From: Branchiostoma floridae
Taxonomy: Eukaryota; Chordata; Leptocardii; Amphioxiformes; Branchiostomatidae
Direction of reading: 5' to 3'
NCBI RefSeq assembly: GCF_000003815.2
Contig: NC_049987.1
Location: forward strand, 13,141,434-13,205,433
Length of the DNA: 64,000 bases
Numbering within the stretch: position 1 is the stretch's first letter; each line of letters starts with the position of its first letter. Position numbers and translations under genes: made by a program. The notes under the pieces are model-generated. The model saw only the letters and a program-made list of their open reading frames with translations. It was not told the origin of the DNA and did not search any database. Shown here piece after piece: positions 3,501 through 29,511 of the stretch.

Positions 3501-6500
3501 AATGGACCCTTGTATTATATAACTACTTAACGTGTCTGCATGAATGCACTTGTCCTGTTTCTAGTTTGTTTGCAGTAATCCTATCTTCACTCTCATTTCC
3601 TGTTCTAATCTGATCCACTTGACACTGAAGTATTGATGTTGAAGGTAATAGAGTCAGGGTTTAGGATTATACTTGCAAGAAACCTGTGATATTGCTAAAA
3701 ATCTCAAATAAACTGAAAAATGTTAACATCCCATATTTACAAACTCTACCATCCTCTTTCCATAGTTGGGGCATATGGTAGTCGCATTTCACCATCTTAT
3801 ACTTTTTTTCACCCACAATGTCAACTTCATTAACTTAATCAGTTTCCAATTCAAAGAACTTTATCATGATTATGCAAACTCCTTTGACAATTATACTGTG
3901 GCAATTTTCTAAATAAGGAAAGAAGAAAAAGCAGTTTAACAAAACGTACAACACTTGAATTCTTTTGCAAGTAAAAGGGTACACAAGCCAGAACTCATCA
4001 AGTGTGCCCTATGCCCCTTAAATCAGTCTGTTCCTTCTCTACATCATGTGTTTTTCCTCTGTTTTCACCCTTAACCAAAGCCCAAACACCTAAATTGCCT
4101 GTTTATAGACAACAGCACTCCTGGGCCACCAGAGATTTAGACATAACCAAAACAAAACCAGTAGCTGAAATGTCAAAAGTGATATCTTAATCTTACTTCA
4201 AACACAGTGATGTATGCACTGTTGGTAGTATTATCTATCAAGTTGTAGAAAACACAATTAAGTTCCAATTAGAGATGTTACCAGTAATTGATAACAGAGA
4301 TGCACTGATACTGGTGTATGATGCACTGGCTGAGGAAATGGTGATGCCTTGATGGAACTGCCTCTTTGCCATATACTAGTAGTAGAAAAGGGAGAGCTGA
4401 AGGAAAGAAATATCCGGCTTATACAATGAATGATCATAGACTTGACCTTATCCCAGCCAAGGGAAATACATTGACATAATTTGTACACCCTTAGTGTCTC
4501 AGGAGGGTGATGGTTAAGCAATGATTACCGTATATTCTCGAATAAAGTACGCACTTTTTTAACTTTTCAAAATTGAAAAGGTGCTACAAGTTGTTGCCAA
4601 AGTTGGGGTGCGTACTTTATTTGAGGTCACTGCACAGAGAAATGGTAAAAAAAGCCTAAAATAAAGCAAGGTGGAGCTACACTTCTAGTAATGTTTCAAA
4701 ACATGCACATTGTTGTTGTCTTGTAGTTGTCTAAACATGAAACAAAGAAATTGTCTAAACATGATTTACATAAGATTGGCATTTGCATACAATCCTTTTG
4801 AGTTAGTGACTTTGACTTGTACAACTGGTTTTTCCTGATTTCTTCTACCAGTTCTCAGTGATTTTTATAATTTGCAGTAGGCAATTCACAAGTTCATAGA
4901 GACAATGACAGTGTAAATGCAGGTTATTTCATGCAAAATAACCTTGGGAAAACATCATAAATTTGAATTTATCCAGTTAAAGGTCTGTTCAAAATTGGTG
5001 GAGAAGGGGTGCGTACTTTATTTGAGTTTTTCCATTTTACCTTTCAGTCCCAAAGATCTGTCTAAGACTTGTCCAAAATCAGGGGTGCGTACTTTAATTG
5101 GGGTGCGTACTTTATTCGAGAATATACGGTACTTTCTAATGGGAGTGAAAGAGACAATTTACGTAAGAGAACATCAACATTCCCTCAACCGAACGGGGGC
5201 CGATACTGACTTCCAAGCACCTTTGTTTGACCCATTGCTGACATCACACTTCCAGTCTGGATGTGTGACGTAGGCTTTGGGTCATTTTAAATGAAAAAGA
5301 TCATAGGACTGATCAAAAGCTTGTTGGTAATAAGCGCTTTATTTTGTGCACGGATTTAAAATTAAAGTGTAAAATTGCATTAGAACTCTACTTACCTAGT
5401 CTGGGATCGATGGCTTCTATGTGTGATGATAGGTCCTCTATAAGTATGTCTTCTCCCCTCAACATAAGAGCATTAGCATCAGGGTTGAGGATGGCCTTGG
5501 TGGACGACATGGTGACTCGGTAGTCTGTCAGTCTGTACTCCAGGATGGCATCTGCAACCAGGTCTTTCACCCGCATGCCATCTTCTCCATCCAGCTGTAT
5601 GATAAAACAGGTGTTGAGTTAAGTTTCAAATTGTTCACTCAAGATTGTGTGTACATGTACATGCACCTTGAACAAGCATGATTACCGTAATTACAGTGGA
5701 CATTCTACTCCCAAATATTAGTGTGCGACACTATAAATATGTGGTAAAGGATTAACCCCAGAATTCAAACTATCCACAGGAAACTTCAAAGACATGAACC
5801 TTTTCCAAAAACATTACCTTTCCTGGGTAGAGTAAAATATGCAAGCTTCAACAATACTTTGGATAGATTACTATAAAAAGAATAATTGTGTCAACATCTT
5901 ATCTTTGAATATACAGTCTTTATCAACTGTCAGGAACCTTTTAAACAAGGCAACCATTTCCAAGATGCCCCCTTAGTCTTAGTCATTCCTTTTGCAAGCA
6001 AATACAGATGCCTTTTTATCTGAACTTTGTATATCAGAGATTAGATGTGTAACAGCAAATTCCCCAAGGACATCTGCTATGTTATCTAATTAGCAGGTAC
6101 AGGGCTAATGGGCACTTCCTGTGACACACCTTTGTCAAGCATGTGCTCAAGAATGCACAAAATTTGCACTGGCCCTTTGAATAGACAGTACTTCCAAGCT
6201 ATGCCAATAAAGTCAAGTCAAGTCATAAAGGTTTCTGTACTGTTTACATACAGTAATAGACCATGTAATCAGAGTAGGTGAAGGGTGACAGAATCCCTAC
6301 AGCAGCACAGATATAGATACAGCCACACTTAAATCATGATAATCAATATAACAGTTACCTTTTAGCCATTCACAGGCATGAATATGGTGTATTCCATAAA
6401 ATTTGAAGGACAATCAGGTACATATAATACAAGCTGTATCAACCTAGTCTGACTTATGCCTTTCGGAAATAATAGTTGACCGGCCACCTTTAAACAATTT

Positions 6501-9500
6501 CATCAAAGATACAGGAAATGTGACAATGCTAGTTTTTGTTTCTAGGATAAAAGCTGTAAATGCAATTTCCAGAAATGCCGAAAGACTTTTTCATTCCTTT
6601 TTAATCTCAGCCTTTCACGGTGCTGTACACATGGTATTTGTTCACAGAGTTAATTGTTTTACAAAAACATTTCACAGCAGTGATTCAGGTATGAAAACGG
6701 ATGAAGCCATATATCAGATGACCCACAACCCATTATCTCCAATTAAAAGGTGATAAGCACCCTTTGTCTATGTATATTGTTTACATGTGACAGCTAAACA
6801 ATAACCTAACAGAACAAAAGACATCCTGATTAGTAGGTATTGTCTTATTATCTCAGTTAAACCTGCCTATTTCCAAAAAAGTAGGAAAATGTTTACCCTA
6901 CACCACCTGCAAAACACTTAACAGTTAAGCTAGTATTTGGGGAGAGTAAGACTTTGATCTTATATAAATGAATATGTAAGTTAGGTACTACATCTTGTGT
7001 AGGACTGAAACCCAGTTCAACTTCAAGCAATCCAATCGAATGCAGTACTAATTGAAATGGGGTCTTTGTTTTTAAACAGAGTTTGTTCTCTAAATGCACC
7101 GCTTCTTTTAACTTACACACCGGGAAATCCAAACATCACATGGAGCTTAACAGTGCAAACAGTCCCTAGCCAACAAGTCACCATAATTCTACAATAGAAA
7201 TCAGTACCGCTACAGTTTGAAGCTTTCATAAATCATCTGCATTCCTGTGCATATGCTACAAACAATAACAAATCAACACAAACAAAAACATTTATCAAAT
7301 ATCAATGAGATTGTTCTGTAATAATCCTTAACAAAAAAACAAATACCAGTATAACTCACTCGTTTTCCCACATTGAAAACTAACAGCATCCAGCAAAATT
7401 TTTTACACTCAAATGCACTTTCATACAAACACATGCACTAACACAAGACGTCACTGATGATTTGACCATAATGCTAACACTGACTGGATTTCTATTGAAA
7501 GGCAAATATTTCATGATACAAATCTCAGTCACATAACACTAATACCTATAATATATGGTATAAATGACCAACAAAAGCTAGTCTGGGTTAAGAAGTAACG
7601 TATCAGGTCGTCACTCTAACACCACACCAACAAAGGACGGAAACTGACCCGTAAACATCACTACATCAGCCTGTTCATGTTGATACCCTGATCACATCAA
7701 CAAGATCCAGATCTCATAGAGCAAACAGACCGGCGTTACATGCTTCTCTGAAAGCAGTAAAAGCACACACAATGCTGGTGTAGCAAACAGACAACAGCGG
7801 CTGTTTGCAGGTGAGTGTTTACAGGTGTGACACTTGGGGGGCGGAGACTGGACCACTGAAGGGGGGCAAGTCTATACAACTTATCTAAACACAGGGAGAA
7901 GGGAAAGTAGCAATTAAGGCTGACAGTCTAACTACCAGTTGTCAGCAAAGTAACAAGAGTTGATGACCTGGATTTACATATGAAAGGAAACAACAAATGC
8001 ATCTGATGTTTAACATCCACATTTTTGACTCCACATAAACGGACAGGAATGAAGTTAAAAGGTTGTTCTTTACAGTTTTGACCATTTTTTAAACCAGAGA
8101 CGTAACATATTGGGAAAAGGTGTGCATATAAATGGACATCTGGTCTACCTTAAATCCCTTGTAGGAATGTATATTTCACTTGTGCATAACTTACCAAGAT
8201 CTTTCACTAGAACCGAAGAATAACAAAAGATCTCGACATTATCAATAATTGAAGAAAGTAAAAGTAGCACTACATCCAGCATAAAAGAAGAATTTGGTAT
8301 CTGACATTGATAGTCTACTCTTGAATAGGTGAAGACTATTTTTGCGGGTATTCATGCCGATTTCAATTTGTAATAGGAAGGTCCAAGTGTGCAGCGGTGA
8401 CTTTCGATTCATGAATTGTTAATACATCTTGGAAAGGTTTGCATTGTTAAAAGTCATATCTCCAAAAATCAATAAATCAATTCTTCAGCTTATTGAGGAT
8501 AAGCATTACTGTAACATACCTGAAGAGTAGAATATTGACTTTTTTCGATTATTATATGATTGCTGTCTGATGAAGAAACCATGATCCTTAAAATAAAGAA
8601 GTCATAACACGTATTCAACAGTATCTCATAAGGTGGCAAGACAATGGCCAAATGAAAATATATCTACATGTACATTAGAGTACCATTTCTCCCTATTCGA
8701 TTTCATTGAATGGACTTAAACATTTACTTAAGACAAGTAAGGTTTATTTTCACTTCAGTAGGACTTTTCCTACTCAAACGCAACCTTCTGTGAGTCTTTT
8801 TTATCAATATCTGGGGGTGAGTTTCTAATTTTAGCTTTCTTAAAAGATCAAAGTCAACAACAGTTGACTGAAAGGCATCCGGATATCTTAAAAGATCAGA
8901 AAATTACTCTTACTTAATTGTTACAAACAAAACATCTCCTAAAACAGACTTCACATTACTATTTTTGTTGGAAAGAGTTGACTCAGTTCCAAGGCTATTT
9001 TAGGAAACTTGTTTTATTTTTAGGCTACAAGCATATGGGTTCAACAACTTAACCCTTAAAGTGACGTTTAATAAAGGGTTTAACACAAGATGCTGAGAAA
9101 GATCCAAAGCTAAACATATATAATACTCATGCATTCTTTCGCAAATTCAGTCAAGCTCTATTAGCTTGGATGCCAGCATTTTTATAGTTTTAGAATGCCC
9201 TCAGTCATTGCCCGAGAAGCGAGTGAGAGCTCTCACGGCCATTTCCCCGGGCAGCGACCAAAAGAGCTAAAAAGGCGGGTATCTAGGTTAAAGCTCCATG
9301 TCTTACAACTGTAACCAAACAGGACTCACATTTTGCAAGCTGTAACTGAGCACAGGATTTCAAGGACTTGCAGTCAACATCTGATGCAGTCAGTGTACAA
9401 TCCATGCTCAAACTCCTGCTGTATCTATAATTACCTACCTTTTTTTGCTTCCTGGTGAAACTCAAATTTAAACTTCTCCTGCGAAATCTCGCCATCTTTC

Positions 9501-12500
9501 CTTCACCTTACACCAGCCTTTCCCCAAACACCTGACTCATATGAATGAGGCAAACACAGATCGTGCGCACCTCCTTTGAGAACCTGACATGGATACAATC
9601 TATCCAAGATTTGTGGCCTCTTCAACTCTTTATACCCATCCTGAAAACAACCTGTTTAAACTCCACTATGCTACGTACACAACATCATCAGTTGCTACTC
9701 TTAACTTTTACATGCGTCAGTGTGTACTTAGGTGGGTCACTACAGCAGACATACAACATTGCTGTATAACCCTCTGCTACACGTTTCCAAATGCTTAACT
9801 GATACCTACGGAAGCAATTCAAGGTTAAAAAGTAGAGTTACAACTTAAGTGTATCTATTTCCAACTCAATATCAACATCAGAGATATGGGATGGTGCCCT
9901 TTTCCCTGGTACACTTCAACATCAACTGTTTTCAGACAACACTGAGTAAATCATGTCCTCCAGATTCGGGTGCTTTCCACAATGGCTGTAAATCTTATAG
10001 GGCCTTCATACTGAAACTGAATCAGCAAGAATCAAGCAGAACCAGCCAGAGTGAAGTATTTGCAAAATTCATGCCACATTCGGGTGGGAATTCCAAATGG
10101 ACCTAATTCCTCTTCACACCAGAGGAGGAATGGGCCGGAATGTTGTCTGAATGAACATTCTTGTATATTCCTGGGTATTTGTAGTATATTCTAGAAGTTC
10201 TACATTTCAGATATTTAAGCTTGTACTTGTATCTTGTTTGTAAACTTCTGCTAAATATTAAAAATTTCACATATTTAGAACTTTATTTGGAAGAGACTGA
10301 TGCAACATCTATTTTTGATAATTTGGCACAACCCACTAATTTCAGTTTATTATTTACCTGCATATTTCAGTCTATTAAAGAACATTATAACATTATAGTT
10401 AGAACATTAAGAAGTCTACAAGATGGCATTTCCCTAAGTCCTAGTGGTATAGCCCCAGCTTGAAATGTCAAACACTATGTACTTGCTTTCTTTCCCTTGA
10501 TCTACAACTTGAATCAAGGAAATCCTTAGATATAGAATCTATGTGTCCCCATGATACACGATATTTATAATTAACACTTGAACCCTGTTTTATCACACAC
10601 ATCACTTCACTTTGCCCACACGCAATCCTGACACCAATTAGCCATGGATTATAGTATTTTACAGCTTTTGAAGTCTGCCTCTCTCTACAATGGTCAGAGA
10701 TCACACGCAATCACTGCAGAGAGTTGTTGTCAATCATTCCTCAAAATAAAGACTGAGGAACCTTTGACTCTACATCCTATTTACACAACAGTGTTATACG
10801 GATGGAAAGGCAAGGGCCCTACACAGGGTTATGTAACAAAATGTTAACATTGTTAGTTGCTATTGGCAACGGGAATGTGAGCTTAGAACAAGGGCATGCA
10901 CAACATTCTAGGCTAAGCCTAGTAAGTAATTCAATATTCCTGGCTTGATAACAAAGTTGAAAGTAAATCCACACTTCAGAAGTGAATAAGCATAGTATTA
11001 TGTACTGAACCACCTAATGCTATTTTTAGCTGTTCACACCATTGATTACTGAAGGATGCTTCACAGGAGCTTGACCAGAAGTAACCTACTAGATTGAGTG
11101 TCCTAACCGCTACATTTCAGCTAGTATCATTTTGGGTTGACCATTCATTCTGCCTTTGGTGTATCTGCCTTTTTCTACCTACTAAAAATACATTTATATC
11201 TCCTTTCCTTTGACAATGATCAAAGTACTCTAAAATTGGCTCGTTTTCTATAACGATACGATCAAAACTGCCAAAGATGGCCACTCAGGCCAGAGTAAAG
11301 ATAAAATTTATTCTATGTGGACAGGTGGCCACTATAAACATTATTCTTAATGCTTGTGTCAATGAGAAAAATTTCTAAGGGACCATCAATTCTGGCCAGA
11401 TGGTCATTACATAGAGGTGGACATTTATACCCATACTAATTACTAAACAGATTGTAATCACATGTACCCTCATTGGTAAACAATAAACTACAAGTAAACA
11501 GAAATTATTGAACACTTCATCATAATCAATTATAACTATGACAAAGACCTATGAGAAACATCTGCTATTCATTATTCCAGCTCAGAGTTTACAGGGTGAG
11601 ATTCTCAAAGCTGCTGATAAATGCAACCTTTAAACTGAATGTATTTGTGACATTACAGGCCAAATCGGTAATGGCAGTAGGCAAATGCCAGCATTCCATT
11701 CACTGACAAAGAAGTGGACCATATGTGTGCTTTCATCCTCCTTGTGTGAGAAGCAATATTTACTGTACACAAATAGGGATAAAGTTTACTCAATCACGAA
11801 GGCAAAATATATATATATATGTAGCTTACACTTTGGAATCATATTTCGATTAAAGTTTATCAATACCTTTTATGCTACTAACTTAAGAAATCTAAATTTG
11901 AACGTCTTACATTAGTTCAATAACTAGGAATAAAACCATGACGCCCTTGCTTCTGTATGACATACAAAAGAGTTTAAAAGATGAAAGGTTGATGAAAGAC
12001 TGATTGGAAAGTCTGTTAAGTTGTTGATAGTTGACACTAATAGACATTTTTTGCAACCTTTGTACTGCTTAGTTATGCACTTAACCAGCACAAACCTTAA
12101 CATTAATTGCTTGCCCCTAGATTTTATCCACTCACCTGTTCATATCTCAATGGTTTAGACTTGATAGGAGAAAGGATATTGGAAGTTGTCATGGCAAGAG
12201 TGCTAATTGCTCCGACAGAAACCCTCTTCTCTTTCTTCTTGTGTTTTCCCAGTGACAATGGAAATCTTCTATTTGGTTTGGGAGAAACCGAAATGGTGGC
12301 TCTTCTCAGTTTTAACCTGGGAGAGGTTTTTTCACCAGCTTTGGGGTTCTCTGTTTCTGTACTATCGGGTTTCTCCGGGTTTTCTGCCGTGTACACTCGT
12401 ATCTCAGGGAGCGAACCACGCTGTGTTGGGTCAGGAAGAAACACATCCCCACAACTGAAATGTCTGCGTGTTCTTTCCATTTCTGGAGGCAAAGGAAGGA

Positions 12501-15500
12501 GGATGTCATCCATGACACCTGGTGTATTCTTGGTGATGATAGTTTTATCATCAGGATCCATCATGGAGGAAACTGGACAGCCAGAATCAAGAGATGATGA
12601 GTCTTCTTGTTCTTGTGAGGAATGTTTCAGTTCATTTTCATCAAGATGTGAACGTCCTCCCTTTCTTCTCTTTAAACCCATCGCAGCTGAGGGAATAGTT
12701 ATATCATCTGTGCCTTTCATGGAGTTATCAGAAGCCTCCAGAGATGGAACAGCCATACTTACAACAGTGACATAATCCTCCTCTGAACTGCATGGTTGTC
12801 TATGTCCTGAAGGTATTGGCAAACTCACAGCTGTGATAAAGACGTCATCTCCCTTCAGACTCTGTTCTGTCTCCCATTCAGAGTCAGAAGCACTCCNNNN
12901 NNNNNNNNNNNNNNNNNNNNNNNNNNNNNNNNNNNNNNNNNNNNNNNNNNNNNNNNNNNNNNNNNNNNNNNNNNNNNNNNNNNNNNNNNNNNNNNNGGCA
13001 TTGCCTTGTGTTGACAGGCAATTAGATTGCGGCACATTCTGTATTTTTTGGCCTTCTGTACTCACCGATGTTCGTACCGAGGTTCTCGGTCTGCATCTTG
13101 ACTTTGTAACTGGCTTCTGCCTGCAGAGTTTACTTGCTTGTCCTGTTCTTGTGCTGAGCTCTTTTACATGACTGGAGTCAGAATGTGCCCGACTGATTCG
13201 GCGGGGCGACAATCCTCCTGCCAAGCCATCCATGGGATGCAGAAAATTGCTCTTCTCAGCAGACCTGGAATCTGAAGATACACCGTTTTCTCCTGCTGTC
13301 TCTTCCACAACTGTGTTTGGAATGTCACCATCAGACTGAGCCCTGTACAGAGCCATGGTGCGCCGCACACTTCCTTCAGGGCTGCAAGACGAATATTTCC
13401 TTGACTGGCCTGCGCTGCCGACTTAAGAAGGTTGCCTCTGCTTTTTTTAAAGGAATCCAAGACCTGCCAGTTGCCTCTGGCTAGGAACACTTGGCTCAGA
13501 GGATGCTGGGAAGAAATGCTTAACCTTTCTCTGACTCACAATCCATGCAATTCAAGCCAGCTTATATTCCTGAACTCTCTGTCTTCATGCATGTATTTCT
13601 CTCAGCGCTGCATTGACTAGGAAGGCAAGCCTGGGAATCTCGGCAGGAATGCATATCTCCTCACACACCAAGGGACCTTATCAAGCTAGAGAGCTGGAAA
13701 CATGCGTCAATGCTGACACCAGAGCCCGCATATAGACCAAGTCTGTCTGGCACTACAGTTCCCTTCAGACCAATTTACATAAACATGGGAGATAGGCAAG
13801 GCAAATTTTATCAATATGTGCTAGGGAACTTTATGACAAAGAATATATATTTGGTATAAAGTATACATGTATATGCGTAGCTGCAATTTGACAGCTTAAC
13901 CGCTTAACTACAAAATCATAATTAAGATTTATAACCTTATCCCTCACAAACAACAATAGGTAAATGAAGCTGACATAAAGGAAATGCATAACATAAAAAG
14001 AAAGATATAGTATCACCTTACATCTAAGCTCTAAAAATAGTAAAATTCTTTAGTACTTGAAAATGCTGTTTTTCATACTGCAAATGCAGAAATGTTCACA
14101 GTAGTTTTATATTGATATGATTATAGTATGATTTACGCAAACTTTAATGCATTTACAGTGTCATTTTCTACAGCACACAAATAAGAGTCGTTACCTTCTT
14201 TCAACAACCGTAGAAAACCAAGCCAAGAAACATGCAACTAATTTTACTGCCTACAAAGGCATGGAAGGAGCAGGGGCGGAAGCTTTCCTTGGGATGGAAC
14301 GTGACAGGCTATGCAGAGTTGGGTCAAAAGGTGGGAATTTGCCATTCATCCACCCAATTATATATAATATCACAAATGCGTCACACAAACAAGATGACGC
14401 TCTGGTATACATCTGTAAAGCTGCTCTAATAAGCAATTTTTCATGTAAATCTAATGAGACAATTACAATAGATATTTCATACATATTATTAATAATTCCT
14501 TCTTATGCATCAATAAACACCTTGCCTTGCATATTTGACACCATCAGCATGCTTTTTTTTTCCTTTTCAAAATTTCAGCCACAGGACTGTTTGAATCTCA
14601 TATTTCTGTTTTGCCTGGTCCCACCCACACAATTCATTTCCAAGAACTCTTGACAGGTTTAAAAATAGCGATGAGAACATCATTTTTGACTGAATAAAAA
14701 TATTGTTGTTTGATGCAATATTTAGATCCCCACAACTTGTAGCATTTCTCAACAAGTGATGGGTGTAGAGCTCCCTCTATCAACAAGACTATGTACTACA
14801 CCAAAAGGTTCTTTCCTTACCCCTTGCTTGAGACGTAAAGTCTGTACAAAATTGACAAACTCGAAAGGTAGTTTCCATTAGATTTTGCATATGTTTAGTA
14901 AACAACGAAGATATTTGCTTTGGCAGGGGTCAAAGAGGTTGATATGGATACATGTACTTTAAAAGGTTAAAGTTCGTGAAGGCTTGGACAGTAGGACTTA
15001 CCTGAGTTCTTCTTGTTTCTATACTATAATTTATAGGAGCAAGACTGGAAAATCATGGTAAAATTTCTCCTTCCATAATACTTTTACCTTATTGTTTTAT
15101 GTTAACATATTACATACACACAGCTAACATATGACATTGCACTTCTGAACTTTGTTACAATAAGTATTGAGTTATTGACTTAATATTAATCAATTACCTA
15201 TATGAACATATAGTTCATGTCTGCATGATCATATACACATGTAATTGATACACATGTATGATCAAAGGGTATAAAATCACCATTGTACTGTAGTTTAAAA
15301 ATTCTGCATACTTCCATATATCCACATATTTACATACATCATACATTTAGCTTTTACGCATTGGTCAGGCTACTGGTCGACCCCTCACACACAGCTAAGG
15401 ATAAGATCAGTACATGTTAGGGATCAATCTTCTTAGCTTCCATCAACAAAGGATCACTGACATACAAACATTTCCAATTGGCTACCTTTCCTTTGTAGCT

Positions 15501-18500
15501 GCCAGTACAAAGGGAAACATTAGATTTAGAACTGAGGAAAATTGACTGTGTGTCATTCTATGATACACCACATTTGAAAAGTTTGAACACAAACTATACA
15601 GCTTTCAGAGTTGGCAGTAAATTGTATTACCAAGTACGAGTTGAAAGGTAGGTACTGGGAGTTGTCATGCCTAGTTTTGAACTATTCTGGCCTTTTTCTA
15701 GGATTTTGTCAGCTAAAGAGCAACATTAATAAAAGTACATACACATATACACCTGTTCATGAAATGTCTATTCATCAGGCACAAGTAGTTACGTAAAAAA
15801 ACAGGCAGTAAAAGTTTATTTACAGGTTGTAAAATGGATGTAAAGCTCTTTGCAAACTTTTCCATTCTTACTGTTTGAAAAACACCTTCTTGGAGGTCAA
15901 CCTTTGAAACTCAATTAAGCCAGTGGTTAAAGCATTTTCTCTGTTCCCTCTTTGTAGAAGGTACGACATAACAAGGCCATGTTGCTTTACAACCCTGCCC
16001 TTTGCCATAAACATGTTGTATTGATTGTTTTGTGTTGCCTAGCGACTATCTGGACCTCTTGAACTTTTCTTGGCAAGTCTTGGTAGTTATCAGGGCAGTG
16101 AAAATTACAGAGGAGTTGCTCTATCTCCTGCAAAGTTAGTCCTGAACAATGGTATCAAAAGTAATTACAAGTTACACAATGAAACACTGAGTCCAGTTGC
16201 CTAGAAGTGGACATCTGTAAATTTCAAAGCTCTTTATTACATGTTTTTCTTATTGACTAGGCTGTGATTCTTAAGTAGCAGGGCTGAGAGAAACACATTT
16301 TCAGAAATTTGACATACATGTATAACAGAGAACCATTTCAAGATCTGAAAACTAGAGGGACAACTTACAAAAGCTTAGTTGTAAGGAACACCTTATCAAG
16401 TTTACGTTAGAATGACCTTACAAACAGTTGAGTATTCACATCCGTGAAGATAAAGTCTGGCGAAGAAAAGAACAGCAAAGCATTTATTTCCATGAGAATA
16501 TAGAAGATACGGATGACAATAACTAGTAGAAAATAGTGTAAATTCATTTACTTTGGTGTCAGAAGGAGAAAGAGAGTTACCACAGTGTTTGAAGTTTGCA
16601 ACTTTGAAGGAATGCTGCAGCACAGTAGTACTAATACATTGGAAATACATATTCACAGTGTCATGAATTTGTAGGGGAGAGGTCACAGCAAAAATAGAAT
16701 CACCGCAAACATTTCAAGATCTACAGTACCCATGAAGTTATAACATCTGAAATTGCCTCCAACCAACAAAACAATGTGCTATGCCCTTTCAAATTTCTTG
16801 AATGGAAGCTTGACTGACTGCTCATGATATTGCACTAATTTCTAGGCATGCTTTTGTTCCATTAACATCATACCAAATATTGACTTGAGAGTTTTGACAA
16901 GTTAATTACAGGCTAGGAGGGTCTGTACCTGACCTGGGTCACTAATGTTGAACCTCCCACCAAGAACTAATTATAATGCCAGGCTTCAGAATTTTGACAG
17001 GTTTATCATGCCAAAATCTTTTGTTGTATTTTACATACTAGATCTGGTGACAATGGCAAAAGAAATCCAGAAAAAAATGTCAGCAAAGTCACTAGGAAAA
17101 GAGAATGGCTGTTCAAAGCTCTTATGAAAAACAGGACAAACATATCATACCTGTCTGAAAACTTATTTCAATCCTAGTATTGGTTTTAGCATTGCTATTC
17201 AATCAAAGAAGCCATACCTGAGGCACTATTGTAAGGTGGTGTGTTATTGACATGTATGTAGTAAGTTCAGCTTTGTAGTGATGAAAATCACAAGTTCATA
17301 TGAATTGGCAATGGTCTAAAGATATGGTATATGGATGATAGCCATCAAACACTACCAAACTGCCTTTTCCTTGTCTCAATATTACCACATGAACTTACTC
17401 TAGTCTGTGTTTACATATGTATTCTTAGAAATCATAGCAACAAATGGGCACTTCCTAGCCCCCAATCATGTTCTTATAATTATTATGAATTGCCTCCTGG
17501 TCCATAAAGACTGCTCCTGGGGTGACTTAAATCAAGTACAAGTCAATTATCATCAGTTTACCAAATACTGAAATAGCCAAGCTGCTAATGACTGAACTGT
17601 CCATATGTTATGAAGCCACTTACTATTTTCCATCCAGGATCTTTCTATAAACTGAATAAGTGATATGTCCACTATTATATACTTTAAAGCAGGGTTGTAG
17701 CCAGCCAGAAATCATTTTCCGTCCCCTCGATTTTGAATGGCTTTGGCACAGTGTTCCTAGCGGGTGCAAGGGCATGCTCCCAAGGAAAATTTTGAAATCT
17801 AGACCCTCTGAAATGCTATTTTCTGCATTTTGAGGGTTAAATTTTCTTCAGAGAGAACTGAATGGGCAAACTTTTTCCGTCCCCAGCTGCAAAATTCAGT
17901 CAAAGGACGGAAGGATGGGTGCTGGCTACAACCCTGCTTTAAAGAGATAGATTTGACTACCAAATAAGATAATTGGGACAACCAATGCTATCTATTCTAG
18001 GCAAAATAACACTAGCCTTCTATTCACCACTGCAGCTATTCCTGATAAAGGACGATTGTGTCTGTCTTCCCAACACTGTCATGTATCTTTCACATGCAGT
18101 GGTTTGTGTCATCCTACACTAATGTTAGTGTTTCTCTCAAAGCACAGGTACCACACCTGGCTTCCTTTCAGCAGATGGTGAAACCACACAAGTAAATGAT
18201 ACACCTGCCCAATGGGGTCACTTGCAGTCTTGTCTTTGTCAGACTGTCAGTCTGGTGTGGAGGTAGCAACCATGACAGCTGAGCAAAGATCCGGCACAAC
18301 TTCTTTATTTGACCAACCTTTCCTTTATACAGTTAGACTTCAGGTCTACTACCATGGTGCATGATAAGAGGCTGCCCTTAAGGCTTGAAAAACAAACTTA
18401 AGAGAAGACACGACAAGATAAAGATGAACCCAGAATGAAAGTTTGACATACATTTTGTTCTTAGTTTGACAAGCAAAACAAAAATCCATAAACCAAACCT

Positions 18501-21500
18501 TTTCTGAAGATAATACATCCTTTCATGTGTCAGAGCTATACACCAAGATCATGGCATTAACAAATATTTGATAATTTTGTATTTATCAACAAGACACCAA
18601 TCATGAATGTAAATTTCATTACACACCTCAAAGATGGCTAATTCTGGCAGCAATGTTGTGGCATCAGGCTATGAATCAATGCATTGGCAAACAACTCCAG
18701 CTGAGATTGTGACATATGCACCACAGAAGGTCTACACAGCAGTTGACAGCCAATTTCAATTGCTACAGGGAGGGTACCATCTATCAGTGTCAAGTGCTTG
18801 GAGAAGAGTGTGCTGACTTCCATGGAAGGTGTTCTCCTTTATTTTCAAACAGAGACGTCAGACTTAACAGGAGTAATTAGAATGCATGTTGCAGGGAGGT
18901 TCAAAGAGACAGCCGCAAGCTTTGTACATGCATTGCAACGTGTGGGCCTGATCCCATCCAAAAATAGAGCAACCTTCACAGAAGAATAGACAAATTCTTC
19001 CTAGATCCGGGATACATTCTTTGACCACAGTTAAAAAGATTTTAAAGTGACCTTACAGTCTTGTTACCTGGTGACAATTTAATAAATAAGAGTTAAAGAA
19101 GAATTCTATCATCCATTAGTCTTACCATTTTCATATTCCAAAATTCTCACTTTACTGAGATTCATCATAATTCCCAAAAGAGCTAAAACAGCATTTCAGG
19201 TTGACTTTGGTGGGAAGCTACTTGACCCTGGTGGCCTCTATGTGGTTGAGACATGCCTGAGGCTACACAAAACCATCCAAGCAGACTACCAGAGCTTCCC
19301 TGTTGTCTCTGAGGGCACACAGGTCAGACTGACAACAAATTAGGCCTCAGTTCAATTCAAAGTTATCTTTCATCTAACCTACATGTACTTCTCCTACAAA
19401 AAAAACGCCTACACAAACTTGTGCAATTTTCTACGTGTACAATAACTACCACCAATTATCAACAGCCTGAATAATTTTTGTTACCTTTTGATCAACCAAT
19501 GGTTTTACAATACTTTTGAAATAAATAAAAAATCAACAAAAGATATCTCTTTTACATTCGTTTCAGGCAGATTTGCCAGTATAATCAAAAGTATTGCAGC
19601 TTTGTGTAGATGAGACAGCAAATTCTGATTTTGTCCATTTTACACCAGAGGCTAGGAAGGCCATGTCCAAAGTTTATCAAGAGAAGCATTTGAAGTGTTT
19701 CTCCTCTTCAAGTAGTCGGCAAGGCCAGGCAAATAAAAGGCACAAGCACTTCTACTCACTCTATCCACTGAACAGTTTTCCAAACACAACCATCAAACTT
19801 TAAAGAAGAAAGTGGCCTTATTATGCCTTAATATGCTGTCTCCAACTATCATAAAATACAGATATTGCATGGCAGTAACAATACAGGGCAATGAAAGGCT
19901 GAAAATAAATTCTTGAACATGAATGAACAAGAACAAACAAATAGCACTTTGGCATGGGTCAGAAACAAGTATTTATATCCTTCAATAAGATAAAGACATA
20001 ATCATTTTTTCTTTCAAAGGGATATCCCAAACTGAGCAAGGGCAAAAAAACAAAACTTGCCATTTCCTTCAGTTCTCATGGGAGACTAAAACCCCTTTTA
20101 AATCCCAAAATTAATGCTGAGCTGTGCTCAGGTACTCGAGCACCTTCCTTCCAACAATGGACGTACAAAGAACACCGGCATTTCAAGAGGCAGCCCTCCT
20201 CCAACAGGAGCAATACAGGGCTGGAGTTGTAGCACACGTAGCTTGTTATTGACATATTACACTGACTACAAAGTCTGTATTGTCCCACTAAGCGACTATA
20301 CAAGCCTGTAGACAAAGTCAACCTTGGCTCAGGTTTCCTTTGCTTTCTCTGCAATGGCTATACATGATTTGCTTTGATACCAAAGACCTGGCCAGGGGTG
20401 ACTTGGATGCTTTCGGTAAATTTGCTTAGCTATGCCTCTGTAAAAAACAAAGGGAAAGGAACACTTGGACAGCGTCTGTTGTTGCTGTGCTAAAGTAGAG
20501 AAACTGCTTAGATATGGTTGGCTTATTGAGCTAACCATGGAAGAAGGAGAGTTCCAAAGGTGTTTCCATCTGTTGCTGAAGAGCAAGAAAGTAGCTTTTA
20601 GTCCACCAAGATTCAGTTCCTCAGACTACAGACTACATGTACAGGAATAAATGTGGGTTGATTCGCAACAATTTTTGATGGTTTAAGTGTCAAGTTCAGT
20701 ACTACTGTTATACTTAGAGTACAGTTGTATTACAAGAAAAGCTCTCCCCAACAAAACAAATAACCAAATTATGAAGCTAACTCTTGTGACCCAGCAAATT
20801 ACTATGCTGTTAGAACCAATTTAACATTTGATTACACAAGAATACTCCCTGCTCAGAGTAATCCATCAAAATTAAGCTTTCATTATTCATAGGCCAGTAA
20901 GCCCAATTGCCCTTTGGATGTAGATACAAACCAATTGAAGAGGGATTGGGGGTGTCAGCAAAAGTTAAACCTTTTTTTTTTCCAGAATTCCTTCCATGAC
21001 TTTTTTTTGGTCAACTTCCGTGGTAAATCAACAGCAAACCGGTTTTGGATATCTCATTGAAGCTCATTATTATATCTTATTATACTTTATAATTAACTTG
21101 CAACCTTTGCTGGGTGATTCTGGTGGTCAATTATTTCAATTAGCAATCAATGGCCACAGTAATGAGTAAAGAAAGGAATGTGGGATGTCTGATCATGATT
21201 TTTATCTAACCAAAATGAATCTAGCCTCAGACAAAACACAGAAGCATATCATGTACTGCATATGCCAAATAATTCTTACAAAATATGTGCCATCTTTCCG
21301 TAAAGTAGGTTCACTTCACTACAGAGACATTTGTCCAAAGACCATGGTCTGCCCTACTATGGGTGAGACCTTGCCCTCTCCCTATTGTCTAATGTACCAT
21401 AGTACACACAGTATATATTTACTTTACTAATATGTTACACATGTAATGCAGGTACGGCACCCTGGGCAACATCAGGTGATTTTATTGATTTTGTAAAGTA

Positions 21501-23409
21501 ATAAATTTGCCATTTCCATTTACAGTGACATGTTAGAATAGAAAGCAGTTTCCTTGAATATTCATATCAGTTTGACATGATATATATTAATATATCCATC
21601 CATCTACTTACATAGTTACAAATTTATAAACTGACTTCAGTGATGTCACAAAAGTACAGAGAGGAGATTTGTGTGGTCTACATTTTTGTGCAATTGTAAC
21701 GGTCCAGTGGGAAGGGGCGCCACCCATGGCTAACATGTGTATCGCATAAATTCGTGATTTTCATGGTGCCCTGTTCCTGACCAATGAAAACATCAAGACT
21801 TTGCAATTTTCATTATTTTGAGTCAGATGTTCAGGTACGAATAAAATGCTTACAAAATGTTTTGAATCCATCTTTCAATTTCAAACAAATAAACAGCATT
21901 GAATTATAAAATTGTCCAAACTATAAAACAAAGTCAGACCATGTTATCAGAGCTTTCTCAGCTGGTCCCATAGCAAACCAATTAGAGATTGCCCTAATTA
22001 GATGGGAAATGCCCAGTTACTATTCTATACCCCAAGGCAATAGAATATCTCTCAGACTTACAAATCAAAACAATACTCATTAAATCTGATTTAGATTAGA
22101 TACTTGCAGGGCCACCAACAAAATCAAAATTCAGTGCAGTCTAGTGTGATTTTTTTCATATAAACAATTCAAGCGTGAAATCCGATTAGAGAAATCTAGT
22201 GGATGTGAAAAGCTAGCAAACACATAATTTGGGTACCGTTATTTGATGGTACAAAGTTCGCAGGACTCACATACAGATAGGAAATTAATCAATTTCAAAA
22301 AAAGCGATATGCTGTGTGCGAACCAAAGCATTTGAAAGTTAAGTTTTGCTCGCTTGAGGCAAACTCAAGTGCAGCGCAGAGAAGGTTTACACAGAAACAA
22401 TCCCACCGAGTAAATAAATCCTGTCCAGACCCTGAACAAACTCGATGTGTACTGTATCTACGGCAATTTCGGGACAAGGGTGTGAAATTCCCATGAAGAG
22501 AAATGACAACAAACAGCGGCCATGTTTTTCTAGAATACCGTGAAAAGTTTAGCCTGGTTACCAAACCCCAGCCCGATCTCAAGTATCTATCGTGCAGGGG
22601 TCTGGGCGGATGGGATAGGAACTCTTCTCAATTTTGCACCTTATAGTGGGCAAAAAACCCCACCAATAGAACAACACAGGATCAGCAGGAGGTAATTACA
22701 CCCCTGCCATGATTGGTTAAAGACCCCCAACTGTACTTTTTGAATCCATAAGGTAGCTGATTCGCTACTGTGATAGCCTGCTGACCAACTGTGGTGTGTT
22801 GTAGCTGGCTACCTGTGGTGAGAGTGGTCATTAATCCTAGGTTCTCCGCCCACTGATCAACGGGCCTTCGAGAACCTTTCTACAGCCATGTTGCCAGACC
22901 CCAACATGAAAGATATATCTTGAGGTTGGGGTATGGAATCCAGGCTATGAAAAGTTGCAACGTACGGAATATTTTTGAAATTGACTCGATCACGCATACA
23001 GTAACGTTTATTCGATTAACACTTTTTTTAACGATTTACTTTCGTGACATTCACCTTTCTTAGCACTATATGATATTTGGACACAGTCATGCTCCAAATA
23101 ATCACGGAAGCCACGTTTAGTCACGACCGTAAACAAACTCTGTCAAACAAGAAAAATTATGACACATGGGCACTGACAAAATAAAGGGCCACTCACCACA
23201 CGAATTAGTCCGTCTGGCAGAGTCGCTTGAACTTGAAACGAGCACTTTTCCTCTTCTTTCCCCTCTTCTTGTAGTTTCTGTTGAGCCATAGCTGTGAGTA
23301 TGCCGGTCATAAGAGAGTCTGTCAGAGATTTGGAGCGGACAAAAAGCTTTCTCTTCACCGAAGAGACGTTTCTTCCGCTGCGGCGGCGTTGAACCTTGGC
23401 AGCCGACAT
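547..23409 (-). CDS. Dbl-family Rho guanine nucleotide exchange factor, 5' part
   Basis: This is a partial gene on the minus strand that continues past the left edge. Two internal exons are clear. Exon 5396-5594 has acceptor ATACAG, donor GTAAG and phase 0 to 1. It encodes a ubiquitin-like Ras-binding segment (MRVKDLVADAILEYRLTDY, then LRGEDILIED). Exon 547-649 has acceptor CCACAG, donor GTGAGT and phase 1 to 2. It encodes the start of a DH domain, with the typical helix VVHELMVTERNYIDAL. DH domains load GTP on Rho-family GTPases; the Ras-binding fold suggests control by a Ras-like GTPase. Three candidate first exons (listed separately) all have phase-0 donors that fit exon 5396-5594. The rest of DH and any PH domain lie outside the window. 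I could not match it to a named vertebrate GEF; it does not resemble PLEKHG5, and TIAM has a PDZ domain between RBD and DH. The family call is firm, the orthologue is not. Confidence 0.8.
1425..1497. repeat. Short imperfect palindrome (hairpin-forming)
   Basis: The arm GGGGTATTCCGTATCACCC at 1425-1443 pairs with GGGCGATACGAAATACCCC at 1479-1497, with 17 of 19 positions complementary. The loop of about 35 bp is GC-rich. It may be a miniature transposon end pair or a solo palindromic repeat. No target-site duplication was recognised. Confidence 0.45.
4528..5129. mobile_element. MITE with 27-bp inverted repeats and TA target duplication
   Basis: The left end CCGTATATTCTCGAATAAAG at 4528 continues for 27 bp that are perfectly repeated in inverse orientation at the right end (5103-5129). 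TA flanks both sides (4526-4527 and 5130-5131). The motif GTGCGTACTTTA from the inverted repeat recurs internally (near 4606, 5008 and 5083), so the ends carry subterminal copies of the terminal motif. There is no transposase ORF. TA duplication points to a Tc1/mariner-like mover. It sits in a RhoGEF intron. Confidence 0.85.
5595..9438 (-). other. RhoGEF intron upstream of the Ras-binding exon
   Basis: AT-rich intron. At 6190-6230 an AATAAAG followed by repeated GTCAA units looks like the 3' tail of an old non-LTR retrotransposon or SINE. Around 9205-9245 a GC-rich patch holds the perfect palindrome GTGAGAGCTCTCAC. No further exon was found. Confidence 0.35.
9439..9495 (-). CDS. RhoGEF short alternative first exon (candidate)
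   Basis: The ATG at 9495-9493, in good context (AAAGATGG), opens 19 codons (MARFRRRSLNLSFTRKQKK) ending at a strong donor, AAG|GTAGGTAAT, in phase 0. That is the phase needed to join exon 5396-5594. The peptide is short and very basic, like the other two first exons. The open frame continues past the donor to a total of 70 codons, but that tail shows nothing recognisable. If used, this isoform would be nearly just the rest of the GEF. The evidence is splice-site quality, start context, strand and phase only. Confidence 0.45.
9496..12135 (-). other. RhoGEF intron between two alternative first exons
   Basis: AT-rich sequence with several short ORFs on both strands that show no domain signature or codon bias. 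There is a small AT dinucleotide run near 11806. I see nothing else I can support. Confidence 0.35.
12136..13356 (-). CDS. RhoGEF alternative long first exon, disordered N-terminus, with assembly gap
   Basis: A long open frame starts at the ATG at 13356-13354 (MALYRAQSDGDIPNTVVEE) and ends with a perfect GTGAGTGG donor (12128-12135) after SPIKSKPLRYEQ, phase 0. The 100 Ns at 12897-12996 interrupt it, so the true length is unknown; as assembled it is 407 codons. The sequence is Ser/Thr/Pro-rich and probably disordered. It has an acidic middle and a basic end (KHKKKEKR). Several basophilic-kinase-like sites are visible (RTRRHFS, LRRATIS, KKEKRVSVG). It would splice in frame to exon 5396-5594, giving an isoform with a long regulatory tail but without the first two strands of the Ras-binding fold. 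The frame stays open upstream to a TAA, and the one nearby acceptor-like AG is in phase 2, so an internal exon is less likely than an alternative first exon. Confidence 0.7.
12897..12996. other. Assembly gap (100 N) inside the long RhoGEF first exon
   Basis: A run of exactly 100 N, usually a placeholder of unknown true length. The reading frame happens to be open on both sides. Confidence 0.99.
13357..17681 (-). other. RhoGEF intron or upstream region, no recognisable gene
   Basis: AT-rich. The longest ORF (14147-14653, plus strand, 168 codons) has low complexity, Ile/Phe-rich composition, and no homology or splice-site support, so it is probably chance. Nothing else is recognised. Confidence 0.35.
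17690..17936. mobile_element. hAT-type MITE with 8-bp target duplication
   Basis: The terminal inverted repeats are CAGGGTTGTAGCCAGC at 17690-17705 and its exact complement at 17921-17936. The 8-bp duplication CTTTAAAG flanks both sides (17682-17689 and 17937-17944). CAGGG-type ends with 8-bp duplications are the hAT superfamily signature. The element is 247 bp and has no transposase. It sits in the RhoGEF intron between the two most distal first exons. Confidence 0.88.
17945..22540. other. RhoGEF intron, otherwise empty
   Basis: Apart from the exon-like pieces at 18630-19806, this AT-rich stretch holds only short ORFs without features and homopolymer T-runs near 20970 and 21000. I see no RNA gene or transposon end. 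Confidence 0.35.
18630..19806 (+). pseudogene. Exon-like segments of an unrecognised gene or pseudogene
   Basis: The plus strand, inside a RhoGEF intron, shows coding-like pieces. Two of them are bounded by splice-like sites with matching phase. Segment 19200-19322 runs from acceptor TTTCAG to a GTCAGA donor, phase 0 to 0, starting VDFGGKLLDPGGLYVVETC. Segment 19594-19803 begins after TTGCAG with LCVDETANSDFVHFTPEA and ends at a stop. Upstream ORFs at 18634-18816 (MANSGSNVVASGYESMHW) and 18798-18989 overlap in different frames, as expected if frameshifted. No family was recognised. It could be a decayed gene, a transposon remnant or chance. Confidence 0.25.
22550..22947. mobile_element. MITE with 9-bp target duplication
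   Basis: The ends form imperfect inverted repeats: the left starts TAGCCTGGTTACCAAACCCC, and the complement of the right starts TAGCCTGGATTCCATACCCC. The 9-bp sequence TGAAAAGTT directly flanks both sides (22541-22549 and 22948-22956). A 9-bp duplication fits Mutator-like or Merlin-like movers better than hAT. The element is 398 bp, GC-richer than its surroundings, and has no transposase ORF. Confidence 0.78.
23197..23409 (-). CDS. RhoGEF distal first coding exon (completes the Ras-binding fold)
   Basis: The ATG at 23409-23407 opens 71 codons ending at a GTGAGTGG donor (23189-23196), phase 0. The peptide starts MSAAKVQRRRSGRNVSS. It is basic and Ser-rich, has an acidic stretch near residues 48-55, and ends FQVQATLPDGLIRV. 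That ending reads as the first strand, the LPDG turn and the second strand of a Raf/RGS12-type Ras-binding domain, and it continues directly into exon 5396-5594 (LDGEDGMRVKDLV). A T-rich acceptor at 23451-23460 and a GTGAGTGTT donor at 23501-23509 suggest an upstream 5'UTR exon, separated by an intron of only about 59 bp. The exon lies in a GC-richer, promoter-like area. Direct joining to exon 5396-5594 is inferred from phase and fold continuity. Confidence 0.7.
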
Positions 23410-23509
23410 GATGAGGATGGCAGTCCGGCGGCGTCCTTCCCTCGTTCACCCTGAAAAAAACGAGCAGATATCTCCAAGATTCCGTCGGAAACCAAACTGG
23501 AACACTCAC

Positions 23510-23800
23510 ACGCTACGCTCCAGTTACTCAGTTCGTCTGTAACATTCCCAAATCCAGAGTTTCCTGCGATTTTCAGAGCGATAAGTAGAACTGTAAATCG
23601 CCCCGTAACGTAGTACTCTGCCTGCCACACTGGGCTTTTGTATGACTGTAGAACTCAGGTCACGTGACGGGAATAACAAACACTGATTGGTCAGTAGTTG
23701 CTCTAAACTACGCCCCCTGTAGACCTCGACTTTGAGTGGAGAAGTAGAGAAGAGAGAGCAAATCTTCTGCTTTGAACTGTGGGAATATTGTAGAGTTATC
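23510..23800 (-). promoter_or_regulatory. Presumed distal promoter and 5'UTR of the RhoGEF gene
   Basis: This stretch lies directly upstream of the distal first exon. It is richer in GC and CpG than the AT-rich introns. It contains the 10-bp palindrome GTCACGTGAC at 23659-23668, an E-box of the USF/TFE (CLEAR-like) type. A donor-like GTGAGTGTT at 23501-23509 would end a non-coding first exon. No TATA box was recognised. The transcription start is not fixed by sequence. Confidence 0.35.
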
Positions 23801-25180
23801 AAGGTAATCTCCTTTTGGTAGTCTCTAAGCAGATCTCACTGTGGCAAAATCGTTATTTTGTCGGCAAAGGCAATATCCATTGGCCAAGACAGAAATTCCA
23901 GTACATGTACACGTAAAAGCTCCTTGGTCCTACTCGGCCGGCTGACTCTAGGAGGCTGACTCCCCTAGCGTACTATTGACTCTTTTTGTCCAATTTCGAC
24001 AATTAGACCACCAAACCACGGAGCCTGGTAGAGGCTACTTGGTGAGCCCAAGGAGGTGAAACGATTAAAAAACCAGTCGGCGCCTTTTATTTTAAAACCG
24101 GCTCTACTGGGAAAATACGATAAAATTTCGGTTTAGAGGGATTCGCACTTCTAAAACATTTTTTCTCTGTACTTTCCACATTATGGGATGTCATATCAAG
24201 CATGTATATGATGCCAAATGTTGTGTACCTTTCGCGGAGTTACCCCGATCAGCGGGAGGCGTCTTTTTCACAATAGGTGCGAAAACCTTAGGACGATAAT
24301 CTCGACTAGGCGACAACAAATTGGCCAATTAATTGGTAATCTTGTTGCAATGAAAAAAGAAGATGTTCCTCCCCTCTGTCTGGACAGGCGCCAGACGGAC
24401 AAGATTAAAGGCGAACGTCAAGTTACACCTATTGAAATGAGAATGGGGTATTCTTCTTGAAAAGAATTAATGTCATAAGTAGCCGACAACATGTCTTGAC
24501 TTGCAATTGACTTTATTTGGATCCACCTTTAGCTTCTGACAAGCTTCAAATATTTCGAACATCGCATGATTCATTCATTGATTGCATCGCACAAAAGGTG
24601 CTACAAACACATTGTTGTAACCTATCGGGTGAAGCGTTTTGATGTATGCAAGGAGGTTATAGGCCTAGGAATTAATGAAATCTGAAAGGGGTCATCTTGC
24701 CTAGTCATCACAGTCAATCGTGGTATTTTTTCTTTACTTTTTACACTAGACCTACTCGCAAATAGTCTCACGTCTGCTTGAACATTGGTTACTTCTTTCC
24801 GTACCTGTGCTTTATCTATGATATGTTTCTTTATTTTACTACCATCCGATTACTACCAGGTCCTCCCTGAAATTTCTTTTCTCTATTTTTTTTCAGGTCG
24901 AGCTCGGTAGCTAATCTAATCTTTTGCCGCATTTTGTATATCTTCGTAGTAGCGTGCATTTTCATCTGTTCGCTTCCCTATGAAAAATTCTGACAGAAAC
25001 CGTGCATGTTCGTACAGCTGCTTTTCTTTAAGACGCACTTGGAGAATTATACTCTAAGCTCGAACCCTGACAAAGTCAAGGTTTCCACTGTTTGGAATCT
25101 TTCCGCCACTTGGACTTGATGAACTGCATCCCAAGACAGTGAGTCAACATCCTTCGGAAATAAGCGTGACTTCCATTTTC

Positions 25181-28114: not shown

Positions 28115-28240
28115 ATGAGAGAGAGAGAGAGAGAGACAGAGAGACAGAGAGACAGAGAGAGAGAGACAGACAGACAGACAGAGACAGAGAGAGACAGAGA
28201 CAGAGAGACAGAGACAGAGAGACAGAGAGAGTTTGACAAA
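28115..28240. repeat. GA / GACA simple repeat
   Basis: A purine-rich microsatellite mixing GAGA and GACA units, inside a wider GA-biased stretch that starts near 27950. The long serine/leucine-rich minus-strand ORF across it is only a readthrough of the repeat. Confidence 0.9.
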
Positions 28241-29454: not shown

Positions 29455-29511
29455 AACTGCGCTTATGTATGATTGATATCCAGCTGGAACATACACCATA
29501 TAAGCGCAGTT
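29455..29511. repeat. Perfect 12-bp inverted repeat (hairpin)
   Basis: AACTGCGCTTAT at 29455-29466 and ATAAGCGCAGTT at 29500-29511 are exact complements around a 33-bp spacer. The sequence is not near any recognised gene. It could form an RNA hairpin or be a transposon relic. Confidence 0.5.

What the first reader, a model, noticed from the sequence alone, without database searches (positions are those of the whole stretch)
5396..23409. Promoter choice may assemble or break a Ras-binding domain in a RhoGEF
Three candidate first exons on the same strand (23197-23409, 12136-13356, 9439-9495) all end in phase-0 donors that fit exon 5396-5594. Only the distal one ends with FQVQATLPDGLIRV, which supplies the first two strands and LPDG turn of a Raf/RGS12-type fold that exon 5396-5594 completes. 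The other two would yield proteins with a truncated fold and either a long phospho-regulated tail or almost no tail. If true, the gene makes Ras-responsive and Ras-blind GEF isoforms by alternative promoters.
Basis: partly seen in the sequence, partly recalled or inferred. Interest (0 to 1): 0.7.

Follow-up and report, generated by a model that had tools for sequence, protein, structure and literature searches.

The report
ARHGAP20-type gene with added exchange domain
The three "first exons" sit at the start of an animal gene (probably a lancelet's) whose predicted protein has both a Rho-activating and a Rho-inactivating domain; the farthest exon may complete a Ras-binding-like fold, but a promoter-driven switch between Ras-sensing and Ras-blind forms is not shown.

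Summary
The exons are partly confirmed. All three candidates are open from an ATG to a phase-0 GT donor. The 213- and 1221-base exons exceed chance (2 seen, 0.02 per shuffle); the 57-base one does not. Following the gene outside the window changes its identity. A 22-exon, phase-consistent model of 1759 residues reads [RBD-like]-DH-PH-RA-RhoGAP. PH, RA and RhoGAP are of ARHGAP20 type (RHG20_PH E=5e-40; GAP best PDB match human ARHGAP20, 3e-53). No other locus of the genome passed the RHG20_PH cut-off. The window's "RhoGEF" is therefore the front of a predicted GEF-plus-GAP protein.

Only the distal exon completes a weak Raf-like RBD match (E=0.042, below cut-off; 0 of 9 scrambled controls). Raf residues that contact Ras are mostly replaced, so Ras binding is doubtful. 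Isoforms reaching the 3' part would keep the RA domain, so "Ras-blind" does not follow.

CpG content jumps from gene-body low to about 1 at the distal exon, not at the other two. The distal exon looks like the main promoter; internal promoters remain untested. Precedents exist: Syx/PLEKHG5 and TIAM2S.

The parts
23197..23409 (-). Distal first coding exon, phase-0 donor; ends with the LPDG hairpin that would open the RBD-like fold
   Evidence: ATG to GTGAGT; beyond chance; at the CpG step; needed for the PF02196 match
22750..23800 (.). CpG-rich 5' boundary of the CpG-depleted gene body, the likely promoter region
   Evidence: 500-bp CpG o/e 0.85, 1.09, 0.92, 0.73 at 22751-23501, against 0.0-0.68 in every window sampled from 1 to 22501
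12136..13356 (-). Candidate alternative first coding exon: long, Ser/Arg-rich, no domain found; holds a 100-N gap at 12897-12996
   Evidence: longest open frame of the window's minus strand (432 codons, N run included); best donor score of 4101; no Pfam family, one chance-level match for a part (E=0.17); CpG not raised
9439..9495 (-). 57-nt candidate first exon MARFRRRSLNLSFTRKQKK; weak, may be chance
   Evidence: 0.41 openings of at least this length per shuffle
5396..5594 (-). Exon with helix and later strands of the RBD-like fold; phase 0 in, 1 out
547..649 (-). First exon of the DH (RhoGEF) domain; phase 1 in, 2 out
   Evidence: the rest of DH and PH-RA-RhoGAP lie outside the window at G000:C9:13127136-13054672 (minus strand)

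Best explanation
The window holds the 5' end of a gene of about 110 kb, in what is probably a Branchiostoma genome. The gene is of ARHGAP20 type (orthology inferred from best matches) and its model encodes [Raf/RGS-type ubiquitin-like fold]-DH-PH-RA-RhoGAP-long tail. Transcription starts mainly at the CpG-rich distal exon. That exon splices to 5396-5594, completing a small RBD-like fold directly before the DH domain, where it probably serves as a regulatory or adaptor module for the exchange domain. Which GTPase it binds, if any, is open, because the canonical Ras-contact residues are mostly missing. Exon 12136-13356 is most likely a real coding exon that gives an alternative N-terminus without the first hairpin (first exon or minor alternative). 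The 57-nt exon is probably spurious. Shown by computation: the exon chain, the domains and the CpG step. Inferred: splicing, promoter use, fold, and the activity of either catalytic domain.
For: Phase-consistent 22-exon chain of 1759 codons with a single stop at its end. Pfam: RHG20_PH 5.4e-40, RhoGAP 5.6e-37, RhoGEF 3.8e-34 over positions 1-177 of 180, RA 7.7e-13. Human ARHGAP20 GAP (3msx) is the best PDB match, 3e-53 against 3.6e-18 for the next. RHG20_PH passes its cut-off only at this locus (2 of 6 listed matches). None of the 10 longest of 45 frames between the DH and PH exons matches a PH domain. CpG o/e stays low over most of the gene and steps to about 1 at the distal exon. PF02196 match only for the distal join. 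A fourth home-made RBD profile gives 10.7 bits for the distal join against 6.5 for each other join; 12 of 3000 random and 10 of 2000 scrambled N-termini reach it.
Against: No transcript evidence. The RBD match is below Pfam's cut-off and is not listed for longer queries. The first three home-made profiles barely separated the distal join from the exon alone (for example 3.6 against 2.9 bits; 126 of 2000 scrambled and 167 of 3000 random N-termini reach it). The exon-chain program inserted part of the 1221-nt exon (12420-12136) between distal and 5396-5594, which would break the fold; I removed it. CpG depletion continues past the 3' end, so it does not prove one transcription unit. A 15-kb intron separates the DH and PH exons, and reading on past the last DH exon is open for at least 36 codons, so an unspliced end there is not excluded.
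Confidence: 0.6

Rival explanations
1. One reading: three promoters, of which only the distal one makes a Ras-responsive GEF and the other two make Ras-blind GEFs with a broken fold.
For: All three exons are open with phase-0 donors; only the distal join matches PF02196. Precedents: TIAM2S lacks the RBD and has its own core promoter (passages of PMC7408714); Syx has alternative start sites (PMC2928299).
Against: Ras-contact residues mostly not kept; an RA domain lies downstream; no CpG signature at the two internal exons; the 57-nt exon is not beyond chance.
Confidence: 0.12
2. Two neighbouring genes: a RBD-DH gene that ends in the 15-kb interval, and a separate ARHGAP20 gene starting near 13062000 of the contig.
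For: Human ARHGAP20 has no DH (recalled; the one passage seen, PMC7915224, mentions only its PH). Long intron between the halves. Reading on past the last DH exon stays open for at least 36 codons. Phase-0 first-exon-like openings exist in the interval (10 listed at donor score 7).
Against: Compatible phases across the junction, no PH match among the 10 longest of 45 frames there, no CpG-rich promoter there (1-kb values 0.42-0.62 at 13061434-13065433), and DH domains are nearly always followed by PH (recalled).
Confidence: 0.15
3. Exon 12136-13356 is not a first exon of this gene: it is a nested intronless gene (it would stop three codons after the donor) or part of it is an internal exon of the distal transcript.
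For: Read-through gives VSG and a stop; an internal acceptor at 12420 keeps phase 0 and was chosen by the exon-chain program.
Against: Strongest donor score on the window's minus strand; inclusion after the distal exon would put 95 residues inside the RBD-like hairpin.
Confidence: 0.2
4. The distal plus 5396-5594 segment is not a GTPase-binding RBD at all, but a ubiquitin-like or other small fold used for dimerisation or autoinhibition of the DH domain.
For: Weak E-value and loss of R59, K84, K87 and R89 equivalents.
Against: The PF02196 match covers 65 residues over 68 of 69 profile positions. The Syx RBD also scores only E=0.0053 with Pfam (recalled sequence) and still binds Rnd3 (PMC2928299).
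Confidence: 0.35

Closest known systems
ARHGAP20 / RA-RhoGAP (vertebrates)
   Same: PH (RHG20_PH), RA, RhoGAP in the same order (order in the human protein recalled)
   Different: Here a complete DH domain and an RBD-like segment precede the PH. That human ARHGAP20 has neither is recalled; the passage seen mentions only its PH.
Syx / PLEKHG5 / Tech
   Same: Raf1-like RBD N-terminal to a DH domain; alternative N-termini Syx1a and Syx1b (PMC2928299)
   Different: Syx has a zinc finger and, in the domain list seen, no RA or RhoGAP. A Branchiostoma floridae Syx (XP_002590453) with zinc finger and RBD is reported in that paper, so this gene is probably not Syx.
TIAM2 long and short isoforms
   Same: RhoGEF isoforms with and without RBD; the short form has its own core promoter (PMC7408714)
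   Different: TIAM2 has PH-CC-EX, RBD and PDZ before DH-PH, and no RhoGAP domain (recalled).
BCR / ABR
   Same: Exchange and GAP domains in one protein (recalled)
   Different: BCR and ABR have a C2 domain, no RA and no RBD (recalled). The DH here is closer to ECT2 than to BCR (4.1e-18 against 2.6e-8).

Membership tests
Raf-like RBD (PF02196) | Profile score over the curated cut-off (25.7 bits) | tested here: not met
   14.2 bits, E=0.042, positions 2-69 of 69; not listed for longer queries. A recalled PLEKHG5 RBD also fails the cut-off (17.1 bits).
Raf-like RBD (PF02196) | Basic residues that contact Ras (Raf1 R59, R67, K84, K87, R89; list partly recalled) | tested here: not met
   Q, I, D, L, Y in ungapped alignment; T68 to R adds one basic residue
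Raf-like RBD (PF02196) | Ubiquitin-like fold | tested here: inconclusive
   Only the 66-aa exon alone was folded; two helices, five models with mean pLDDT 39.6-72.3. The spliced peptide was not submitted (tool rule).
ARHGAP20 | RHG20-type PH domain | tested here: met
   E=5.4e-40; only locus over cut-off
ARHGAP20 | RA domain followed by RhoGAP domain | tested here: met
   RA 7.7e-13, RhoGAP 5.6e-37; GAP best PDB match human ARHGAP20, GIFR motif kept
ARHGAP20 with the domain layout of the human protein | No DH domain before the PH (recalled trait of the human protein, not a definition of the family) | tested here: not met
   RhoGEF 3.8e-34 upstream in the same phase-consistent chain; that it lies in the same transcript is inferred
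Dbl-family RhoGEF | Complete DH domain followed by PH | tested here: met
   PF00621 1-177 of 180; PDB matches to ECT2, ARHGEF9, ITSN1, on the spliced model. Exchange activity not testable.
Syx/PLEKHG5 | N-terminal zinc finger before the RBD | tested here: not met
   No Pfam match in the distal exon, whose peptide holds a single Cys and no His
Alternative-promoter RhoGEF isoforms (TIAM2S type) | Separate transcription start with its own promoter | not testable with these tools
   No transcript data; CpG signal only at the distal exon

The most novel reading that the evidence does not exclude
The lancelet ARHGAP20 gene encodes a two-headed Rho switch: an RBD-like sensor next to a GEF and an RA sensor next to a GAP, in one protein. 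Internal first exons break only the sensor beside the GEF, so promoter choice sets whether the activating half is under small-GTPase control while the inactivating half stays Rap-responsive. Vertebrates kept only the PH-RA-GAP half.
Probability: 0.15. Interest if true: 0.7.

Novelty: new variant of a known kind. Interest (0 to 1): 0.42.

Why it matters
If one transcript carries both halves, ARHGAP20, known as a Rap1 effector that inhibits RhoA, has a relative that may also activate Rho-family GTPases, which would change how its evolution and wiring are read. It also gives a concrete case for testing whether a regulatory fold split across an exon junction is switched by first-exon choice.

Tried and rejected
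Considered first: that the gene is Syx/PLEKHG5. Rejected on the ARHGAP20-type PH and GAP and the lack of a zinc finger in the distal exon. A link to Drosophila GEFmeso (found in a two-hybrid screen with active RalA, passages of PMC8216719) was a recalled lead and could not be tested.

AvrPphF-ORF-2 matches to exon 5396-5594 were judged chance: below the curated cut-off, and strongest (E=0.00084) in a scrambled control.

A single-sequence structure model of exon 5396-5594 alone gave two helices with disagreeing confidence between models and was not used. No fold search was run on it.

Home-made RBD profiles: three versions were nearly uninformative. A fourth, chosen afterwards from LP[ND]-type RBDs only, separated the distal join. 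The choice was post hoc; the recalled PLEKHG5 RBD and the partial RGS14 second RBD were dropped for it.

A possible exon near 8583-8520 (HGFFIRQQ...) was considered by eye and set aside: by my reading its donor phase does not fit 5396-5594.

Paper searches that found no account of a DH-bearing ARHGAP20: ARHGAP20 with DH domain, 2 papers listed; ARHGAP20 with RhoGEF domain, 3 listed; 4 distinct papers, none opened. One search (RhoGAP1A with RhoGEF) found none; (RhoGAP1A) listed 2, of which one was seen as a passage and gave no domain account. The library holds open-licence papers only, so this is no proof of absence. PMC2928299 was read in parts 1-2 of 5 plus passages; PMC7408714, PMC8216719, PMC11722539, PMC7915224, PMC3507925 and PMC7927664 were seen as passages only.

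Full report
1. What was checked. All exon boundaries in the finding were re-read on the minus strand. Each of the three candidates runs from an ATG to a GT donor in phase 0. Exon 5594-5396 opens in phase 0 and closes in phase 1. The following exon, 649-547, opens in phase 1 and begins a DH domain. The acceptor of 5594 is mediocre (269 of 3826 AG sites score as well).

2. More than chance? In the 18-kb interval, ATG-to-phase-0-donor openings of at least 150 nt with an equally strong donor occur 2 times, against 0 on the other strand and 0.02 per shuffle. For at least 57 nt they occur 3 times, against 0.41 per shuffle. The donor threshold was that of the weakest candidate, which flatters the set; with looser donors the 57-nt class grows to 5 (1.32 per shuffle) or 7 (3.84 per shuffle). 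The distal and 1221-nt exons are therefore credible open frames; the 57-nt exon is not separable from chance. Codon usage, trained on four long RhoGEF-bearing frames of the same genome and one BTB-type exon of the window, gives 0.14 bits per codon for the distal exon and 0.26 for 5396-5594, but -0.05 for the 1221-nt exon and -0.13 for the 57-nt exon. In the distal, 1221-nt and 57-nt exons the stated frame was not the best of the three (10.0 against 15.4; -20.7 against -15.7; -2.5 against 2.2), so this measure is weak. The 1221-nt exon also contains a 100-N gap.

3. What the gene is. The assembly that holds the window has 513,431,437 bases in 431 contigs, which fits a Branchiostoma floridae assembly (size recalled; species inferred, not shown). 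I fetched the 90 kb next to the window on its low side, where the gene continues, and built an exon chain. I then added one DH exon that the program had missed, changed the start of two others (first PH exon, second RA exon) and removed the partial copy of the 1221-nt exon that it had inserted. The result is 22 exons, 1759 codons, consistent phases throughout and a single stop at the end. Pfam on the first 921 residues: RHG20_PH 5.4e-40, RhoGAP 5.6e-37, RhoGEF 3.8e-34 (positions 1-177 of 180), RA 7.7e-13; also a second PH family (SOS1_NGEF_PH 4.4e-7) at the same place and a sub-threshold Nod1 match. The RhoGAP part matches human ARHGAP20 (3msx) at 3e-53 and the next PDB chain at 3.6e-18; the GIFR arginine-finger motif (name recalled) is kept. 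The RA part alone matches no PDB chain at E up to 0.1. RHG20_PH exceeds its cut-off only at this locus (2 of 6 listed matches, both exons of this gene). So this is an ARHGAP20-type gene with a full DH domain in front of the PH. The DH matches ECT2, ARHGEF9 and intersectin best.

4. One transcript or two? For one: phases agree across the 15-kb intron; none of the ten longest frames there (10 of 45 of at least 55 aa) matches a PH domain; CpG o/e at 13061434-13065433 is 0.42-0.62, with no promoter-like peak. Against: no cDNA was available; reading on past the last DH exon is open for at least 36 codons, and ten first-exon-like openings are listed in the interval. CpG depletion also continues beyond the gene's 3' end (0.09-0.64 in two further 10-kb stretches), so it does not outline the unit. 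Some gene-body windows are CpG-rich (1.11 at 13137434, 0.73 at 13131434, 0.69 at 13139434, 0.68 at 13089434), perhaps recent insertions.

5. Is it an RBD? The joined distal plus 5396-5594 peptide (86 aa) matches PF02196 over positions 2-69 of 69 with E=0.042, below the curated cut-off. The joins from the other two exons do not match, nor do 9 of 9 scrambled N-termini. Longer queries (172 and 921 aa) did not list the match. As positive controls, RAF1 gave 2.7e-28 and a recalled human PLEKHG5 RBD gave only 0.0053. Home-made profiles gave mixed results. Three gave little gain from the distal exon (3.6 against 2.9 bits, 1.3 against 1.2, 5.9 against 4.9; 126, 278 and 73 of 2000 scrambled and 167, 398 and 168 of 3000 random N-termini reach the distal join). 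A fourth, chosen later, gave 10.7 against 7.3 bits for the exon alone; 12 of 3000 random and 10 of 2000 scrambled N-termini, and 0 of 2000 scrambles of the second exon, reach it. The LPDG hairpin aligns with Raf1 without gaps over 36 residues (8 identities). R59, N64, Q66, R67, T68, K84, K87 and R89 become Q, D, L, I, R, D, L and Y. PMC2928299 states that T68, K84 and R89 of Raf1 contact Ras and that changing the Syx pair equivalent to K84/R89 prevents Rnd3 binding. A Raf-like fold is plausible; Ras binding of the Raf kind is not supported.

6. Promoters. CpG o/e in 500-bp windows is 0.0-0.68 from 1 to 22,501 and 0.85, 1.09 and 0.92 at 22,751-23,251, staying high upstream. In 1-kb windows centred on the ATGs, the distal value (0.93) is reached by 6 of 222 gene-body windows, the 1221-nt exon's (0.37) by 85 and the 57-nt exon's (0.42) by 65. 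Over the whole window, which holds other CpG-rich blocks, the distal region ranks only at the 79th to 85th percentile. This pattern (a CpG-depleted, presumably methylated body and a CpG-rich start) places the main promoter at the distal exon. Tissue-specific CpG-poor promoters inside the gene are not excluded.

7. How it most likely works. Inferred: the distal transcript makes an RBD-like-DH-PH-RA-RhoGAP protein, in which the N-terminal fold ends about 20 residues before the DH and could gate it; in Syx the RBD is the site through which Rnd3 restrains the GEF (PMC2928299). The RA-RhoGAP half would answer to Rap1 as in mammals, where RA-RhoGAP/ARHGAP20 is named as a Rap1 effector (PMC3507925 passages; the same paper reports no effect of its knockdown on Rap-induced spreading in one cell line). 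Transcripts from the 1221-nt exon would lack the first hairpin and carry a long Ser/Arg-rich N-terminus. They would still carry the RA domain, so they need not be blind to Ras-family GTPases.

8. What is known. An RBD in a RhoGEF and alternative Syx starts: PMC2928299. RBD-less RhoGEF isoform with its own promoter: TIAM2S, PMC7408714. I found no account of a DH-bearing ARHGAP20 in the two searches made for it; they listed four distinct papers and none was opened.

Noticed in passing
4526-5131: A short element with perfect 29-nt inverted repeats at its ends, 548 nt between the arms, lying in the intron between exon 5396-5594 and the DH exon; looks like a MITE-type transposon.
   Followed up: partly
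50340-54109 (minus strand): BTB-BACK-Kelch (KLHL-type) gene: BTB 1.5e-28, BACK 2e-26 in 53141-54109, weak Kelch (0.0011) in 50340-50567.
   Followed up: partly
39039-40043 (plus strand): Reverse transcriptase fragment of a retrotransposon (RVT_1, 2.2e-19), followed by a 317-N gap at 40045-40361.
   Followed up: partly
35152-35694 (minus strand): 180-codon open frame with high codon score and a hydrophobic C-terminal stretch, no Pfam family at E up to 1.
   Followed up: no
22,000-42,000: Block of high CpG o/e (0.68-0.95 per 2 kb) between two CpG-depleted blocks (1-22,000 and 42,000-50,000), a mosaic pattern that may outline transcription units.
   Followed up: no
G000:C9:13137434-13139433 (outside the window): CpG-rich 2 kb (1.11) inside the otherwise CpG-depleted intron after the first DH exon; a recent insertion or an internal promoter.
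   Followed up: no
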